Shown: piece by piece, positions 232 through 53,995 of the stretch
How positions within the stretch are numbered: the stretch's first letter is position 1
Layout of the letters: the number at the start of each line of letters is the position of its first letter
Origin: Fibrobacterota bacterium
GTDB lineage: Bacteria; Fibrobacterota; Fibrobacteria; UBA11236
Length of the DNA stretch: 64,000 bases
NCBI GenBank assembly: GCA_947482115.1
Contig: CANKII010000005.1
Span: 62,001-126,000 of the forward strand
Reading direction: 5' to 3'
Position numbers and translations under genes: made by a program
The notes under the pieces: generated by a model
What the model saw: the letters and a program-made list of their open reading frames with translations, nothing else
What the model was told of the DNA's origin: nothing
The model's database searches: none

Positions 232-1070
232 AAAAAGGGAATGACTTTCGCCTTGTCGTGGATATCGGTAACACGCATACCGTGATTGGATTGTTCCAGG
301 GTGCGAAAATTCAACGCAACTGGCGGCTGGCAACGCGCAAAGACACGACGGTGGATGAAATCGCGTTCTGGTTACAGGGATTGAACCTTGTAGGGGCGAC
401 CCACCCTTCGACTACGCTCAGGGACCATGGGTCGCCCCTACAAGGTTCGGCATTGGCATCCGTGGTGCCAACGCAGGATAACGCCTGGTTGTCCGCCATG
501 GAAAATGTGTTCGGGATAAAACCCCGCATCCTCAATTACAAGGATTGCCTGGGCCTTAAACTCGATTATGAAATCCCCAGTCAAATCGGTGCGGATCGAC
601 TGGCCAATGTATTGGGAGCCGAGGCTTTGGGAATTAAAGAAGGTGTCATCATCGATTTTGGAACCGCCACCACTTTCGACGTGTTTGCGAACCACACCTA
701 TTACGGCGGTGTCATTTGCCCGGGCATTCAAACCGGTTTGCGGACTCTAGTACAAAGCACCGCCAAACTCGCCGAGCCGGAATTGCGGTGGCCGAAGCAG
801 TCCGTGGGGCGAACCACGGATGAAGCTTTACGCATCGGCATTTTGCACGGCTCGCTGGGCATGATTGAAAGCCTGTTGAAGAATATTCTTGCCGAATCTT
901 ATTTCGGAAAAAAGAAGCCCGTGGTGATTGCCACGGGAGGGTTGGCGGTTTGGATGCGCGATCACACCAAGGCCATTCAGCGCTTCGAACCGGATTTGAC
1001 ATTGGCGGGCATCAATCATTTGCTGTCCGGAAAAACCCCGGTGGGTTCCACACGAAGGAGTGCAAAGTGA
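228..1070 (+). CDS. coaX: Type III pantothenate kinase
   Basis: The 280-residue protein should phosphorylate pantothenate in the first step of coenzyme A synthesis. It shows the phosphate-binding start [15 protein letters not shown] (residues about 9-23), the [11 protein letters not shown] motif and the [12 protein letters not shown] motif, all diagnostic of CoaX rather than CoaA. Its start overlaps nadC and its stop overlaps the next gene by 4 bases. A 66-base palindromic element (383-448) sits in frame and encodes about 22 residues ([19 protein letters not shown] region) between the N-terminal subdomain and the following strand. This makes the protein longer than the usual 250-260 residues. 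The key motifs are intact, so it is probably functional. Confidence 0.93.
383..448. repeat. GTAGGGGCG-type palindromic element inside coaX
   Basis: Left arm 383-403 and right arm 428-448 are perfect 21-base inverted copies around a 24-base loop. The core is GTAGGGGCGACCC. The outer part of the arm (GAACCTT) is not found in the other copies. The loop holds a second small inverted motif, CCCTTCGAC...GCTCAGGG (404-423), which recurs elsewhere. The element is 66 bases, so the coaX frame is kept. Confidence 0.9.
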
Positions 1071-2789: not shown

Positions 2790-3656
2790 TCAATAATTCC
2801 GGACAATGATTTCCCTGACCGCCCCGCGCGCCGAGGATTTGGAATTTATCGCACGGGTTGCATTGACTTTCTGCAATTGTTTCTTCATTCGATAATGTTT
2901 GAAAAGCTCCAAAATGAAATCGGAATAGGAATTAGAAAGCATGACAAGGCATTTCTTGTGAGCCAACTCCGCAAAAACATCTTTCAGTTTTCGTTGTTCC
3001 GTTTCCCCAAATCCGCTTTTTTCATACGCAGAGAAATTGGCCGTGCTGGAAACCGGGTGATACGGAGGATCGAAGTAAATGAAATCCTTGGGTTTGGCGG
3101 AACGAAGAATGGCGTCGAAGGACTGAAGGCGAATCGATACGCCTTTCAAAGCTTCGGCGCATAACCGCAAATTTTCCTCGTCGCAAATCTTGGGGTTCTT
3201 GTAACTTCCGAAGGGAACATTGAATTGGCCCTTGGAGTTCACCCGGTATAAACCATTGTAGCACGTTTTGTTGAGATAGATCAGTCTTGAAGCACGTGCG
3301 ACCTCATCAAGATTTTTGGGATCGGCACTACGCAGCCGGTAGTAATACTCTTTGCTGTGTACATGTTTTTTCAAAGACTTGATCAACTCCTCGACCTTTG
3401 TTTGCACCACGACATAAGCATTGATCAACTCCGGATTCAAATCCGATAGATAAGCCTTCTTGAATCGTTTCTGTCCTGCCAATTCAAAGAACAAAGCGCC
3501 GCCACCGAGAAAAGGCTCATGATACGAACTGATTTTTTCAGGCATCCCTTTCAACAATTCATCGATGAGTTGGCGTTTTCCACCCACCCATTTGAGAAAA
3601 GGTTTGGCCTGCTTGGGCGCTTCACCGCTTTGGGTGATTTTGGATTTAGAAGGCAT
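2790..3656 (-). CDS. Dam-family DNA adenine methyltransferase (intact copy)
   Basis: A D12-class N6-adenine methyltransferase of 288 residues, predicted to methylate adenine in a short palindrome such as GATC. All family motifs are present: FLKWVGGKRQL (SAM binding, about 20-30), PFLGGGALFFEL (48-59), NKTCYNGLYRVN with GQFNVPFG (129-150, the DNA-contacting hairpin), catalytic DPPY (196-199), and INSKSSARG near the C-terminus. The start MPSKSK matches the start of its paralog at 4848. An in-frame extension to 3704 overlaps the nuclease gene and looks non-coding. It lies 20 bases after the nuclease gene and 13 bases before bioC. Its last 15 bases are identical to those of the paralog, which indicates duplication. 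Confidence 0.92.
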   Translation of the reverse strand: MPSKSKITQSGEAPKQAKPFLKWVGGKRQLIDELLKGMPEKISSYHEPFLGGGALFFELAGQKRFKKAYLSDLNPELINAYVVVQTKVEELIKSLKKHVHSKEYYYRLRSADPKNLDEVARASRLIYLNKTCYNGLYRVNSKGQFNVPFGSYKNPKICDEENLRLCAEALKGVSIRLQSFDAILRSAKPKDFIYFDPPYHPVSSTANFSAYEKSGFGETEQRKLKDVFAELAHKKCLVMLSNSYSDFILELFKHYRMKKQLQKVNATRAINSKSSARGAVREIIVRNY

Positions 3657-3676
3657 GAAAAAGCTGGAGATTAAGG

Positions 3677-4066
3677 TTAGAGGACAAAGTACAACTTGAG
3701 CCAATCCACGAGGTCTTCAAGTTCCACAACGATACCGGTGGCGATGAGATACCCTCGCATATTCTCCGAGAAACCGGGACCATCGATGACCACAAGTCCG
3801 CGAATGGGCCAGGCCTTGATGTCTTCAATCGTGGCGGGGATTTTCTCCTCGGCTGTTCCCGTGGTTCCCTGAAACTTGCATTCCAAACCCAGCTTGAGTT
3901 TGGATTTCAGTTCGGTGAGCACCACGTCGATGCGCCGTTGCGGGCCCCAGATTCGCCGCCCGACTTTGACTTCAGTGCGGCATTCCAATCCGAGTGAAGT
4001 GGCGAGTTCCACAACGGCCTTTTGTAATTCCTGCCCGTTGGCAACGGCTTGCGCTCTTCCCGGCAT
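3677..4066 (-). CDS. Small PD-(D/E)XK nuclease, likely restriction endonuclease
   Basis: A 129-residue protein with a PD-(D/E)XK core: RIDVVL provides Asp47 and LECKFQ provides Glu62-x-Lys64. These are followed by GTAEEKIPATIEDIKAWPI and a GLVVIDGPGFS strand, a pattern I recognise from short nucleases found beside Dam-type methyltransferases. The ATG overlaps the TGA of the upstream methyltransferase-like gene (TGATG), so the two are translationally coupled. The intact methyltransferase follows after 20 bases, giving M*-R-M order. The inferred role is restriction of DNA lacking the modification. It could alternatively be a nicking or DNA-damage nuclease, since it is much smaller than DpnII-type enzymes. 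The longer upstream frame to 4414 is only antisense overlap. Confidence 0.8.
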   Translation of the reverse strand: MPGRAQAVANGQELQKAVVELATSLGLECRTEVKVGRRIWGPQRRIDVVLTELKSKLKLGLECKFQGTTGTAEEKIPATIEDIKAWPIRGLVVIDGPGFSENMRGYLIATGIVVELEDLVDWLKLYFVL

Positions 4067-4848
4067 CAATAATTCCGGACGATGATTTCCTGAACGGGTT
4101 CCGCCGATTTGACCAGAGACGGAATCGCGACAACCTCCGGGACGTAATCCTTGTAATGCTTCTTGGTATGAGGCGTACAGGAATTCGAAAGCAACAGGAA
4201 GCATTTCTTGCGATCCAACGCTTCGAACACATCCTTCAACCGGCGATGATCCTGTTCGCCGAAGTGCTTGAAATCCTCGGAGTCCTTCGCCACCCTTTTC
4301 GAAAGCGGATAATACGGCGGATCGAAATAAATGAAATCGCCCTTGGTCACATCCCGCATGACGGCGTAATAGGACTGACGGCGAATGGTGACGCCTTTCA
4401 AAGCTGCGGAACACAGGCGCAGATTTTCTTCGTCAAAAACAACGGCCTTCTTGCCGCCAGCCTGGTTGAGATAAATAAAACGCGAAGCGCGTTCTATGAC
4501 ATCCATCTCCGCAGGATCCAGACTGGAAATCTGGCGATAATATTCACGGCTGTTCAACCCGGCATGTTTTTTCAGGGAGACGATTAATTCTTCCACCCAC
4601 GTTTGAACTGCGACATAGCTGTTGACCAAGTCCTCGTCCAAATCGGAAAGGTATGCCAGTTGAAAACGCTTGCGTTCGGCCAGTTCGAAGAAGAGCGCGC
4701 CGTTTCCCAAAAAAGGCTGGTGATAACTCTTGCAATAAAATCGCGGAAGACGTTTCACCAACTCAACCAGCAATGCCGGTTGAACTCCCAACCCTTTAAG
4801 AAAAGGCTTGGCCTGTTTCGGTTCAACAGGTTTTGATTTGGTGACCAT
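4066..4848 (-). CDS. Degenerate Dam-like methyltransferase paralog
   Basis: A 260-residue paralog of the methyltransferase at 2790-3656, alignable from KQAKPFLK to EIIVRNY. The SAM-binding motif is altered: WVGGKRQL becomes GLGVQPAL, losing the second Gly and the Lys. PFLGGGALFF reads PFLGNGALFF. The whole NKTCYNGLYRVN/GQFNVPFG block is gone (FIYLNQAGGKKAVVFDEENL), as is the C-terminal INSKxxARG motif. DPPY is kept (176-179). The frame is open with no stops. It is therefore either an early pseudogene that has kept its frame, or a protein kept for another role such as a partner subunit of the coupled nuclease. The start at 4848 is chosen by alignment with the paralog; an earlier start would run into bioH. 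Confidence 0.85.
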   Translation of the reverse strand: MVTKSKPVEPKQAKPFLKGLGVQPALLVELVKRLPRFYCKSYHQPFLGNGALFFELAERKRFQLAYLSDLDEDLVNSYVAVQTWVEELIVSLKKHAGLNSREYYRQISSLDPAEMDVIERASRFIYLNQAGGKKAVVFDEENLRLCSAALKGVTIRRQSYYAVMRDVTKGDFIYFDPPYYPLSKRVAKDSEDFKHFGEQDHRRLKDVFEALDRKKCFLLLSNSCTPHTKKHYKDYVPEVVAIPSLVKSAEPVQEIIVRNY

Positions 4849-4865: not shown

Positions 4866-5579
4866 TCAAAAGGAGCCGGGAAATATAGCCCCGCCAACCA
4901 AACGCTGCAGGCTGGTGCGAATCAATTCCGGGCATTCCCAGAAAGGCAGATGTCCGCCTGCATAATCCGTCCGCACAGCCCTAGGCGGAAGGGTTTCCAT
5001 CCCGCGATCCGGAGCCAGAAGATCCTGATCTCCAAACAGCAATTCCCACCGATCCGGAACGGAATGTAGCGTGGAAGTCTCGACCACAATGTCTTTGAGA
5101 AAATCCAGCCCTTGAATCAGTTCTGCATCGGAATAATTCCGCGCTCCCGCAATCCAGTTTTCCTCCCACTCGGCAGGAATGACCCCCGCCTTGGGCATGC
5201 GCCGCCAGAAGTCGCGCAGCACCGCTTCCCGATGGGCAATCAGTTTCTTTTCCATCTTCAGAATGATGGGTTCGCCGAATCCGCCGGGACGGAGAAACCG
5301 GAAGACCGGACAGAGGGACAGCAATGGCAAATCCTGCGGCCATAATCCCTGCGCAATCCAATGATGGGCCAACAGAGTTCCCATGGACCAACCTGCGACG
5401 ACATTCCCCCCAACTCCCTGAGGGGGGAATAAAACACCCGCCTCGGCGGGCGTTTTATTCAACAAGGCATGTGTGTCGAGAAAGCGATGTTCAAAATCGG
5501 GGAACAGTTCGCGCAGCTGTTTTTCCCAGCAGGACAGGGACGAAGCCCACCCGCCCAACCAATGAATCGTAGGCTTCAT
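4866..5579 (-). CDS. bioH: Pimeloyl-ACP methyl ester esterase-like hydrolase
   Basis: An alpha/beta hydrolase of 237 residues with the nucleophile elbow GWSMG (Ser66), a GDQDLLAPDRG acid region and a C-terminal GGHLPF histidine. Sitting between bioF and the rest of the biotin operon, it is best read as the esterase that releases pimeloyl-ACP from its methyl ester. Similarity to BioH itself is modest, so it may be one of the alternative esterases. The ATG overlaps the bioF stop (ATGA). Residues about 40-60 (NKTPAEAGVLFPPQGVGG) are encoded by two hairpin repeats lying inside the gene at 5403-5460. The reading frame survives. Confidence 0.75.
   Translation of the reverse strand: MKPTIHWLGGWASSLSCWEKQLRELFPDFEHRFLDTHALLNKTPAEAGVLFPPQGVGGNVVAGWSMGTLLAHHWIAQGLWPQDLPLLSLCPVFRFLRPGGFGEPIILKMEKKLIAHREAVLRDFWRRMPKAGVIPAEWEENWIAGARNYSDAELIQGLDFLKDIVVETSTLHSVPDRWELLFGDQDLLAPDRGMETLPPRAVRTDYAGGHLPFWECPELIRTSLQRLVGGAIFPGSF
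5403..5460. repeat. Two overlapping hairpins inside the bioH-like gene
   Basis: Hairpin 1 pairs ATTCCCCCC (5403-5411) with GGGGGGAAT (5422-5430). Hairpin 2 pairs GAATAAAAC-CCCGCC (5427-5442) with GGCGGG-GTTTTATTC (5445-5460) with one mismatch. They share the GAAT at 5427-5430. The block is read in frame by the hydrolase gene and encodes a low-complexity loop just before the nucleophile strand. Confidence 0.8.
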
Positions 5580-7748: not shown

Positions 7749-8717
7749 TCAGGGTGACGTCAGAATTGTTCCGCTATCTCCCACGGCCACAAGTTGTTTG
7801 CCGGTTGAAGTCACGGAGCGGAGATCCTGCATTGTTCCAGAGGTTTGCTTTGTCCAATTTTCCCCGTCCGTTGAAGTCAGGATGATGCCGTGTTGCCCCG
7901 TGGAGATGAATTGAGTCTCCGCTTGCGGTGAGCCTGTCGAACCCGTCCAGAATACTGAAGTCAATCTTTCGGTCGTTCCTGAATTCCTTGCCGTCCAGAT
8001 CACTCCATCCATCGAAGTCAGAATAGTGCCGGATTCGCCCACGGCGATAAACCCCGTTTTTGCTGACACGATGGAGAATAAGGCGTTTTCGGTTCCCGAA
8101 GTTTGGTTTGTCCACGTAATTCCGTCGGGCGAGGTCAGGACGGTGCCATGATAACCCACGGCGATCAACTGGGTGCCTGTCCATATCACCGAATAGAGTG
8201 AATAGTCCGATTCCGCACTGCGCGCGGTCCAGTTCACACCGTCGGATGAAATCACCTTGGTTCCGTAATAACCTCCGACGGCTACAAACAGTCCGGTCCC
8301 TGAGCCTGTCGAAGAGCCCGTCCATGTCGCGGAATACAGGGAGTTCTGTGTGACCGGATTTCGTACTGTCCAATTTTTACCGTCTGGAGAGGTGAGTAGG
8401 GTGCCGTAATAACCCAATGCAATCCATTGCGTTCCCGCATATGTCACGGAGTACAGTGCATAGGCTGTTCCTGAAATCCTTGTGGTCCATGTGATGCCAT
8501 CGAGAGACGTCAGGATGATACCACTATCCCCCACGGCTATAAGTTGTAGTGAATCCGCCGAACCCATCTTGGCTACTGAATAGAGAGTGTTATGAACTCC
8601 CGATGCCCTTACAGTCCATGTCTCGCCCTGAATCGTGGTGTTTGGAGCGGTGGAATGATTGCACGCGAAAAGGAATGCAAACGAGAGTAGGAGGATTAAT
8701 TTTTTCGGATGCAGCAT
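7749..8717 (-). CDS. Seven-repeat beta-propeller lipoprotein
   Basis: A 322-residue exported lipoprotein: MLHPKKLILLLSFAFLFAC gives a signal peptide with lipobox LFAC. The rest is seven repeats of about 42 residues of the type LIAVGxxGTxLTSxDGxxWTxxxSGTxxxLxSVxWTG. The last repeat is cut at LTSP and the first begins at GETWTVRASG, as in a ring-closed seven-bladed propeller. The repeats recall Ycf48/Asp-box propellers. Its function is unknown; surface binding or scaffolding is a guess. It is the only gene in the segment between tRNA-Val and the copied tRNA end. A homologous propeller forms the N-terminal part of the protein at 48920-50704. Confidence 0.85.
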   Translation of the reverse strand: MLHPKKLILLLSFAFLFACNHSTAPNTTIQGETWTVRASGVHNTLYSVAKMGSADSLQLIAVGDSGIILTSLDGITWTTRISGTAYALYSVTYAGTQWIALGYYGTLLTSPDGKNWTVRNPVTQNSLYSATWTGSSTGSGTGLFVAVGGYYGTKVISSDGVNWTARSAESDYSLYSVIWTGTQLIAVGYHGTVLTSPDGITWTNQTSGTENALFSIVSAKTGFIAVGESGTILTSMDGVIWTARNSGTTERLTSVFWTGSTGSPQAETQFISTGQHGIILTSTDGENWTKQTSGTMQDLRSVTSTGKQLVAVGDSGTILTSP

Positions 8718-23042: not shown

Positions 23043-23190
23043 CACCCCACCCTACGACAGGCTCAGGGCATCGCCTTTTTGCTTCCTCCCCTCTTGAGGG
23101 GAGGAAGTTTCACATGGGTCTGAAACAAGAAATGTTTTTTGCATTACCCCCCTTCCCCTCAAGAGGGGAAGGGGTCGGGGGATGGGGTGA
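23042..23190. repeat. MITE-like element, copy 1
   Basis: This fills the whole gap between two convergent genes. Two perfect 12-base hairpins, CTTCCTCCCCTC/GAGGGGAGGAAG (23082-23107) and CCCCTTCCCCTC/GAGGGGAAGGGG (23149-23174), flank a T-rich spacer. The outer ends ACACCCCAC and GATGGGGTGA are roughly inverted. A CCCTACGACAGGCTCAGGG motif (23050-23068) is nested at the left end. Copies 2 and 3 lie at 30415 and 45582. Confidence 0.85.
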
Positions 23191-46956: not shown

Positions 46957-48793
46957 AAAAAACTTGCGCGGATCAAAATCCAAAACATCCAAGACGGTTG
47001 CAACCAAACCCATTAAAGCAACCAAATCCTCTCTCAAGTTGATTCCCACCCAGCATGCGCTCGTGGAAAACTTGCAACCTTCAGTGGACGGCGGGTTGTT
47101 TCCTGTCAAAGCGGTACCGGGGGAACTCATCGAAGTCACGGCGGATATTTTCCGCGATGGGCACGACAAATGCGAAGCCGATCTTCTTTATCGCCGCAAA
47201 GGTGAAAAAACATGGCAGCGCACACCCATGAGTTTTGTGGACAATGATTTGTGGGGCGGCGAATTCACGGTGGATGCCGTGGGGAATTGGGAATTTACCA
47301 TTGAAGCAAGAACGGTGGGTTTGGGTGCGGCGGTAGGGGCGACCCGGCGGGTCGCCCCTACCGCCGCCGCATTTGAAACACCGTATTTGCATCCACATTT
47401 CGGCACAGTCCGCGTTGATGCCAGATTGACGGAATACAGCGCATGGTATGAAATGTTTGCCCGTTCACAAGGCACCGTTCCCGGCAAAAGCGCGACCTTC
47501 GCGGACATGGAAAACCGTCTGCATGAAATCAAGGGAATGGGTTTTGATCTCATTTACCTTCCGCCCATCCATCCGATCGGGATGACCAAACGCAAGGGCA
47601 AGAACAATTCGCTCACAGCCCAACCCGGTGAACCCGGTTCGCCCTATGCCATTGGTGGCAAAGAGGGCGGGCACAAGACCGTGCATCCCGAACTCGGAAC
47701 GTTGGCGGATTGCCGCCACTTTTTCAAACGCTGTAAGGAAATGGGTTTTGCGGTCGCTTTGGACTTTGCCTTGAACTGTTCGCCGGATCATCCTTATGCG
47801 AAGAAGCATCCGGATTGGTTCTACCGCGAAAAAGATGGCACCATCAAATGTGCCGAGAATCCGCCCAAGCGTTATGAGGATATTTACCCGCTCAACTTCT
47901 TCTGCGAAGATCGCGCGAATCTCTGGCTGGAGCTGAAATCGGTCATCGAGTTCTGGATCGACATGGGCGTCACCGTGTTCCGTGTGGATAATCCGCATAC
48001 CAAACCCTTCGCGTTCTGGGAATGGTTGATCACCGAGATCAAATCCAAGCGACCCGATGTAGCTTTTCTCGCCGAAGCTTTCACACGCCCGAAAGTCATG
48101 AAGCGATTGGCAAAAATCGGTTTCGATTTGTCCTACACGTATTTCACATGGCGTGAGACCGCGCAGGAATTGCGTGAATATCTGGAAGAGCTGACACAGC
48201 AGGATCCCAAGCTGTACATGAAGCCCATCTTCTTCCCCACCACGCCCGACATTCTTCCCTATCCGTTGCAAAACGCCGGACGCGAGGCATTCCAAATCCG
48301 CTTTGCGTTGGCTAGTACTCTGGTCGGTGCTTATGGGATGTACAACGGCTATGAGCTCTGCGAAGGCACACCGTATCCGGGCAAGGAAGAGTATGGGAAT
48401 TCGGAGAAGTACGAGTACAAGGTTTGGGACTGGAACCGACCCGGTAACATCAAGGAATTCATCGGCACCTTGAATCGTATTCGCAAAGAACATCCGGCAT
48501 TGCACAAGCTCAAGAATCTGACTTTCCATGATTGCGAGAATCCGCAGATGCTGGTTTACTCCAAGGCGGAAGGCGATGATGTTTTACTCTTCGTGGTGAA
48601 TCTGGATCCCCTGCATCGTCAGGGCGGCTTCATGACACTGGATTTAAATGCGCTTCAGGTGAAGCATGAAAACATCTTTGGTGTCCACGATCTTCTCTCC
48701 GGCGAAAGCTATGCATGGTCCGGGGCGAGGAATTATGTGGAATTGGAGCCGAAGAAGCAGGTGTTGCATATTTTGAAGGTGGAGAAGTTTTAG
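46946..48793 (+). CDS. glgE: Maltose-1-phosphate maltosyltransferase
   Basis: 615 residues of GH13 subfamily 3, which extends alpha-1,4-glucan by maltosyl units. It has YLPPIHPIGMTKRKGKNN, VALDFALNCSPDHPY, the nucleophile segment FRVDNPHTKPFAFW, the acid segment FLAEAFTRP, and a C-terminal beta domain. It is shorter than the usual 650-700 residues. Between GNWEFTIEAR and EYSAWYEMFARSQG only about 40 residues remain, and part of these (AAVGATRRVAPTAA) is encoded by a palindromic element at 47327-47367. The helical segment normally found there seems to be missing. The catalytic residues are intact. Confidence 0.92.
   Translation: MPAKKNLRGSKSKTSKTVATKPIKATKSSLKLIPTQHALVENLQPSVDGGLFPVKAVPGELIEVTADIFRDGHDKCEADLLYRRKGEKTWQRTPMSFVDNDLWGGEFTVDAVGNWEFTIEARTVGLGAAVGATRRVAPTAAAFETPYLHPHFGTVRVDARLTEYSAWYEMFARSQGTVPGKSATFADMENRLHEIKGMGFDLIYLPPIHPIGMTKRKGKNNSLTAQPGEPGSPYAIGGKEGGHKTVHPELGTLADCRHFFKRCKEMGFAVALDFALNCSPDHPYAKKHPDWFYREKDGTIKCAENPPKRYEDIYPLNFFCEDRANLWLELKSVIEFWIDMGVTVFRVDNPHTKPFAFWEWLITEIKSKRPDVAFLAEAFTRPKVMKRLAKIGFDLSYTYFTWRETAQELREYLEELTQQDPKLYMKPIFFPTTPDILPYPLQNAGREAFQIRFALASTLVGAYGMYNGYELCEGTPYPGKEEYGNSEKYEYKVWDWNRPGNIKEFIGTLNRIRKEHPALHKLKNLTFHDCENPQMLVYSKAEGDDVLLFVVNLDPLHRQGGFMTLDLNALQVKHENIFGVHDLLSGESYAWSGARNYVELEPKKQVLHILKVEKF
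47327..47367. repeat. GTAGGGGCG-type palindrome inside glgE
   Basis: Perfect 20-base arms around one base, core GTAGGGGCGACCC, with the locus-specific outer arm GCGGCG inverted on the far side. It is translated in frame as part of the GlgE N-terminal region. Confidence 0.92.
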
Positions 48794-53955: not shown

Positions 53956-53995
53956 TCATTTGTAGGGGCAACCCATGGGTTGCCCCTACAAATGA
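53956..53995. repeat. GTAGGGGC-type 40-bp perfect palindrome after ptsP
   Basis: Two 20-base halves without loop or mismatch, core GTAGGGGCAACCC, with the locus-specific outer arm TCATTT. A separate half-copy GTAGGGGCG at 53945-53953 overlaps the ptsP stop codon. It fills the gap between convergent ptsP and dnaA. Confidence 0.92.

What the first reader, a model, noticed from the sequence alone, without database searches (positions are those of the whole stretch)
4066..4848. Dam paralog stripped of SAM and DNA-recognition motifs but kept in frame with a nuclease
Compared with the intact copy, WVGGKRQL is GLGVQPAL, the NKTCYNGLYRVN/GQFNVPFG hairpin is deleted and INSKxxARG is lost, yet DPPY and the rest of the fold remain with no stops in 260 codons. 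The stop/start overlap TGATG couples it to the nuclease. A catalytically dead methyltransferase kept as a specificity or inhibitory subunit of a small nuclease would be a novel arrangement.
Basis: partly seen in the sequence, partly recalled or inferred. Interest (0 to 1): 0.7.

Follow-up and report, generated by a model that had tools for sequence, protein, structure and literature searches.

The report
Dead Dam duplicate in restriction-modification cassette
A bacterium carries a small DNA-cutting enzyme and its usual protective DNA methylase inside its biotin genes, plus a second, broken-looking copy of the methylase that has lost its DNA-reading parts but is still kept as an open, protein-like gene; this seems unique to this genome and is probably not a required part of the cutting enzyme.

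Summary
Window 4848-4066 (-) encodes a 260-aa Dam paralogue (dam'), 54% identical over aligned residues to the intact Dam at 3656-2790. It overlaps (TGATG) a 129-aa PD-(D/E)XK nuclease (Pfam PDDEXK_11). The three genes sit between bioH and bioC; that site is empty in two congeners. In 63 of 66 related loci the nuclease lies by exactly one Dam, so nuclease plus Dam is a plain two-gene restriction-modification cassette. No other locus has a second Dam, so the nuclease does not in general need a dead-Dam subunit. dam' is not freely decaying: omega about 0.3 against 0.1 for Dam under a clock, neutrality rejected (strongly with a clock, modestly without), hydrophobic core kept, no stops. Best reading: a lineage-specific dead duplicate, weakly constrained, probably with a non-catalytic binding role, possibly only a translational leader for the nuclease. 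The partner role is inferred, not shown.

The parts
4066..4848 (-). dam': catalytically degenerate Dam/DpnM-family paralogue, 260 aa (the finding)
   Evidence: TIGR00571 141.7 bits, PF02086 92 bits; motif X, hairpin and C-terminal motif lost, FxGxG and DPPY kept; AF2 model pLDDT 90.9, DpnM Z 25.4
4699..4806 (-). N-terminal part of dam': degenerate motif X, PFLKGLGVQPALL (intact copy PFLKWVGGKRQLI), through motif I PFLGNG
   Evidence: codon alignment: W, G and K that are invariant in 64 relatives are replaced by G, V and Q; FxGxG kept
4438..4476 (-). site of the in-frame deletion of the GATC-recognition beta-hairpin in dam' (IYLNQAGGKKAVV, residues 125-137)
   Evidence: alignment with P0003 and 64 relatives; equivalent of E. 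coli Dam residues 118-139 (PMC10073500)
4303..4326 (-). retained motif IV FDPPYYPL in dam'
   Evidence: DNA around it is among the best-conserved stretches of the pair
4064..4068 (-). TGATG stop/start overlap joining dam' to the nuclease
   Evidence: sequence; only a weak Shine-Dalgarno-like GGA upstream of the nuclease ATG
3677..4066 (-). 129-aa PD-(D/E)XK nuclease (Pfam PF20472 PDDEXK_11), catalytic D47, E62-C-K64, Q66
   Evidence: PF20472 67 bits, E 1.5e-18; R44, D47, C63, G70, E74, G96 invariant and E62, K64, Q66 in 90% or more of 74 sequences; AF2 pLDDT 89.9, restriction-endonuclease-like fold
2790..3656 (-). intact Dam/DpnM-type N6-adenine methyltransferase, 288 aa
   Evidence: TIGR00571 299 bits; best solved relative DpnM 2dpm, E 6.5e-68; all motifs present
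2790..4848 (-). three-gene insertion dam'-nuclease-dam between bioH (5579-4866) and bioC (starts about 2776)
   Evidence: bioD-bioF-bioH-bioC uninterrupted in congeners G001 and G003

Best explanation
A two-gene restriction-modification cassette (a minimal PDDEXK_11 nuclease and a Dam-type, presumably GATC, methylase) was inserted into the biotin operon of this Fibrobacterota lineage. Its Dam gene was duplicated, there or before arrival, and the copy upstream of the nuclease lost methylation and GATC reading (motif X replaced, recognition hairpin and C-terminal motif deleted) while keeping the Rossmann fold. Shown: homology, losses, intact frame, cassette context, insertion site, weakened but non-zero purifying selection. 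Inferred: dam' survives as a non-catalytic folded protein, most likely binding a partner encoded in the same operon (nuclease, Dam or DNA-bound Dam) and, through the TGATG overlap, also setting nuclease translation. It is an accessory of this lineage, not a general component of the system. Restriction and protection themselves are done by the nuclease and the intact Dam.
For: Nuclease with exactly one Dam in 63 of 66 loci from Hydrogenedentota, Armatimonadota, Chloroflexota and others; three of these have two nucleases, none has two Dams. More distant PDDEXK_11 nucleases sit beside a beta-type DNA methylase in 31 loci, so the family travels with DNA methylases. dam' and Dam are sisters (98/92 support), with branch 1.09 for dam' against 0.05 for Dam. 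Codon model under a clock: omega(dam') 0.30-0.36, omega(Dam) 0.08-0.10; neutrality rejected with 2dlnL 22-32, equal omega rejected with 2dlnL 23.7. Family-hydrophobic positions are 68% identical against 53% expected under drift without stops (3 of 1299 identity-matched simulations reach it); P(no stop) is about 4e-4 under free drift. No compensated frameshift at motif X. AF2 model superposes on DpnM over 228 residues, Z 25.4.
Against: No orthologue of dam' is known, so constraint is inferred from one sequence and its paralogue. Without the clock the rejection of neutrality is modest (2dlnL 4.4 and 6.2). Retention against family conservation shows no overall trend (p 0.77), which free drift would also give. 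The nuclease does without dam' everywhere else, which argues against any essential partner role. No interaction evidence exists, and the AF2 confidence may be borrowed from the family alignment. GATC specificity rests on homology alone.
Confidence: 0.4

Rival explanations
1. Translational leader: dam' has no protein function; its frame stays open because ribosomes finishing it re-initiate at TGATG on the nuclease, so stops and frameshifts would be polar on the nuclease.
For: One-base overlap TGATG and only a weak Shine-Dalgarno-like site for the nuclease; open frame unlikely under free drift; all losses are at the amino-acid level, none break the frame.
Against: The codon-model null omega = 1 with stops excluded is this hypothesis, and it is rejected with a clock (2dlnL 22-32) and weakly without (4.4-6.2); core residues are kept preferentially.
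Confidence: 0.25
2. Decaying duplicate: dam' was functional for most of its history (low omega) and died recently; it is now drifting and will be lost.
For: Relaxed rate relative to Dam; many catalytic invariants gone; found in one genome only.
Against: About 30 family-conserved positions are changed or deleted, which suggests a long dead phase, yet there is no stop (P about 4e-4 at K 0.31, 3e-3 at K 0.2) and no frameshift.
Confidence: 0.2
3. Retargeted methyltransferase: dam' still binds SAM through FxGxG and uses DPPY on another substrate.
For: FLGNG, D72, DPPY and SNS kept; the DPPY stretch is among the most conserved parts of the pair.
Against: Motif X W, G and K, invariant in 64 relatives, are gone; motif I carries Gly to Asn; T..FT.Y after DPPY is lost.
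Confidence: 0.1
4. One reading: dead Dam as the specificity or inhibitory subunit that the nuclease requires.
For: Genetic coupling; very small nuclease with no separate recognition domain.
Against: 63 relatives with no dead Dam; a congener nuclease with no Dam found; the GATC-reading hairpin that would confer specificity is exactly what is deleted.
Confidence: 0.05

Closest known systems
DpnII-type restriction-modification system (DpnM, DpnA, R.DpnII)
   Same: Operon with two Dam-type methylase genes and one nuclease; DpnM (2dpm) is the nearest solved relative of both copies.
   Different: From general knowledge DpnA is an active second methylase; here the second copy lacks the recognition hairpin and motif X. 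The nuclease is a 129-aa PDDEXK_11 protein to which no solved sequence matched.
PDDEXK_11 nuclease plus single Dam, two-gene cassettes
   Same: Same nuclease (about 44-64% identity in most Dam-linked loci) and same type of Dam close by.
   Different: No dead second Dam in any of them.
Pseudo-methyltransferase partners such as METTL14 and ciliate MTA9 (general knowledge)
   Same: A dead methyltransferase-fold protein kept beside an active paralogue.
   Different: Those are conserved heterodimer partners; dam' is a singleton and no interaction is shown.

Membership tests
Dam family N6-adenine methyltransferase (TIGR00571 / PF02086) | Sequence homology above the curated cut-off | tested here: met
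   141.7 bits vs 114.85; PF02086 92.3 vs 22
Dam family N6-adenine methyltransferase (TIGR00571 / PF02086) | Motif X (KWxGGK) of the SAM/target pocket | tested here: not met
   KGLGVQ in dam'; W, both G and K invariant in 64 relatives
Dam family N6-adenine methyltransferase (TIGR00571 / PF02086) | Motif I FxGxG | tested here: met
   FLGNG
Dam family N6-adenine methyltransferase (TIGR00571 / PF02086) | Catalytic motif IV DPPY | tested here: met
   FDPPYYPL
Dam family N6-adenine methyltransferase (TIGR00571 / PF02086) | GATC-recognition beta-hairpin (E. coli Dam 118-139) | tested here: not met
   deleted; role of the hairpin from PMC10073500
Dam family N6-adenine methyltransferase (TIGR00571 / PF02086) | Methylates GATC | not testable with these tools
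   needs biochemistry or a methylome
Type II restriction-modification system (nuclease + intact Dam) | Nuclease gene next to a methylase gene, recurrent across genomes | tested here: met
   63 of 66 loci with Dam; 31 more distant loci with a beta-type methylase
Type II restriction-modification system (nuclease + intact Dam) | Nuclease with intact PD-(D/E)XK site | tested here: met
   D47, E62, K64
Type II restriction-modification system (nuclease + intact Dam) | Cleaves the site that the methylase protects | not testable with these tools
   no cleavage data; GATC in the window is 0.89 of expectation, uninformative
DpnII-type two-methylase system | Second methylase is a functional enzyme | tested here: inconclusive
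   motif loss makes GATC methylation very unlikely; activity itself untested
Pseudogene | Disrupted frame or neutral evolution | tested here: not met
   open frame; neutrality rejected, strongly only under a clock

The most novel reading that the evidence does not exclude
dam' is a pseudo-methyltransferase recruited as a regulatory subunit: it binds the minimal nuclease or the intact Dam through the Dam fold and tunes cleavage against protection, a bacterial restriction-modification analogue of active/dead methyltransferase pairs.
Probability: 0.2. Interest if true: 0.65.

Novelty: new variant of a known kind. Interest (0 to 1): 0.35.

Why it matters
It gives a concrete, testable case of a dead methylase paralogue kept beside its active sister inside a restriction-modification operon. 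On the way it shows by comparison that PDDEXK_11 nucleases are a widespread, very small restriction partner of Dam (and of a beta-type methylase). If dam' proves to regulate the nuclease it would be a new control mode for restriction-modification; if not, it may show how translational coupling keeps a dead gene open.

Tried and rejected
Compensated frameshift as the origin of GLGVQPA: rejected, the in-frame alignment is best there. Tandem duplication of a dam-nuclease unit leaving a nuclease remnant before bioC: no signal above random 50-mers. Phage or plasmid origin: no nuclease relative found in phages, plasmids or IMG/VR; dam' in IMG/VR also found nothing. GATC avoidance as a test of specificity: uninformative. 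Literature on dead methylases in restriction systems: searches returned nothing relevant; PDDEXK_11 as a term: no paper. PDB sequence search with the nuclease: none. A complex of dam' with the nuclease could not be modelled with the single-chain tool.

Full report
Setting. The window lies on a 151-kb contig of a 2.7-Mb genome; an order-level relative is labelled 'Fibrobacteria' (G010 = L062). On the minus strand the order is bioD (7467-6748), bioF (6766-5576), a bioH-like gene (5579-4866), dam' (4848-4066), nuclease (4066-3677), Dam (3656-2790) and bioC (from about 2776). In congeners G001 and G003 bioD-bioF-bioH-bioC run without interruption, so the three genes are an insertion between bioH and bioC. 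Gene names of the biotin cluster are by resemblance and synteny, not tested by family scans.

The observation. dam' is a true Dam-family protein and its nearest relative is the intact Dam beside it: 48% identity in BLAST with gaps counted, 54% over aligned residues; the two are sisters with 98/92 support. Numbered on the intact copy and compared with 64 relatives, it has lost W23, G26 and K27 of motif X, R109 (by alignment the equivalent of E. coli Dam R95, a phosphate contact), the hairpin (T131 to P148), T205, F208 and Y211 after DPPY, and R268, N271 and R277. A review gives the E. coli hairpin as residues 118-139, with Y119, L122, R124 and P134 making the GATC contacts and K9 reading the first guanine (PMC10073500). 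All of these but the K9 equivalent (the lysine of FLKG) are gone. Motif I FLGNG, DPPY and LSNS are kept. So dam' cannot read GATC in the known way, while SAM binding is doubtful rather than excluded.

The nuclease. It is Pfam PDDEXK_11, 129 aa, with an alpha-beta-beta-beta-alpha-beta core predicted at pLDDT 89.9 and restriction-endonuclease-like matches (Z up to 9.8, fold level only). In 74 sequences D47 is invariant and E62, K64 and Q66 nearly so. Between the window and congener G002 the protein is 76% identical while silent sites are near saturation, so it is under clear purifying selection. In G002 it is alone, behind a gene that looks like panB, with no Dam found in that genome.

What the cassette is. 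One scan of 84,980 species genomes gave 50 relatives of the nuclease, and further searches in Hydrogenedentota, Armatimonadota, the phylum of G171 and a Chloroflexota class gave more. Of 66 loci read, 63 have exactly one Dam, mostly adjacent and always within about 3 kb of the nuclease, three of these with two tandem nuclease genes; one has a beta-type methylase; two have neither, one of them on a short contig. A few Dams are cut by contig ends. Order varies: nuclease then Dam, Dam then nuclease, or convergent. In 31 loci carrying a more distant form of the nuclease the neighbour is a different methylase with DPPYESLEKHR. The inference is an ordinary R plus M pair; convergent orders mean that the two genes do not need co-translation. 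None of the 66 has a dead second Dam, and searches with dam' itself in 167 genomes of the phylum and 68 Hydrogenedentota found no orthologue, only Dams at 44% identity or less outside this genome.

Is dam' under selection? On the protein tree the dam' branch is 1.09 and the Dam branch 0.05. Pairwise dN is 0.36-0.39 and dS 1.3-1.9. A branch codon model with equal time for both copies gives omega 0.36 vs 0.08 with one outgroup set and 0.30 vs 0.10 with a closer set. Neutrality of dam' is rejected (2dlnL 22.4 and 31.8) and so is equality with Dam (23.7). Without a clock the rejection is weaker (4.4 and 6.2), and the neutral fit then needs 4-5 times fewer silent changes in dam' than in Dam, which is odd for two genes 400 bases apart, unless they came together only recently. 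The codon model excludes stops, so its neutral case is also the leader hypothesis. By simulation, family-hydrophobic positions are kept more than drift would allow (68% vs 53%, 3 of 1299 matched runs), while other positions are kept slightly less. Free drift from the intact copy would leave no stop with probability about 4e-4. There is no trace of a compensated frameshift at motif X. Against this, within aligned columns the chance of a residue being kept does not rise with family conservation (p 0.77): structural positions are held, functional ones are lost, and the two may cancel. This fits a dead but folded protein; it does not prove one.

Structure. The AF2 model of dam' (pLDDT 90.9) superposes on DpnM over 228 residues at 2.3 A, Z 25.4, with lower confidence at residues 181-200 and 241-250, where the T..FT.Y and INS..RG segments used to be. 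The model was made with a family alignment, so its confidence is partly borrowed.

Mechanism. Shown: homology, losses, open frame, cassette, insertion, weakened constraint. Inferred: GATC specificity, restriction, and a binding role for dam'. A requirement for dam' as a specificity subunit is disfavoured by the relatives and by the loss of the very element that reads DNA. A lineage-specific accessory or leader role remains, and only experiments or sister strains can separate these.

Limits.

Noticed in passing
window 383-448, 47333-47361, 53962-53989: A palindromic element (GTAGGGGCGACCCA...TGGGTCGCCCCTAC) occurs three times; one copy (21-nt perfect arms) lies inside an open pantothenate-kinase-like gene without breaking the frame. 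Chance expectation 0.36 half-sites, 6 found.
   Followed up: partly
window 5427-5460: Another palindrome (GAATAAAACACCCGCC / GGCGGGCGTTTTATTC) lies inside the bioH-like open frame.
   Followed up: no
window 7926-7941, 8298-8313, 23053-23068: Dispersed CCCTGAGCCTGTCGAA-type repeat, 5 matches against 0.68 expected, two of them inside one open frame.
   Followed up: no
L033 1501-1887 (G002): Congener carries the PDDEXK_11 nuclease alone behind a panB-like gene, 76% identical, catalytic residues intact, with no Dam found in the genome.
   Followed up: partly
L191 1420-2248, L192 3475-4331, L194 3479-4311: Tandem pairs of diverged PDDEXK_11 nucleases convergent to one Dam, a possible heterodimeric nuclease.
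   Followed up: no
L041-L084: Distant PDDEXK_11 nucleases, mostly in myxobacteria, cyanobacteria and Acidobacteria, are linked in 31 loci to a DPPYESLEKHR beta-type methylase.
   Followed up: partly
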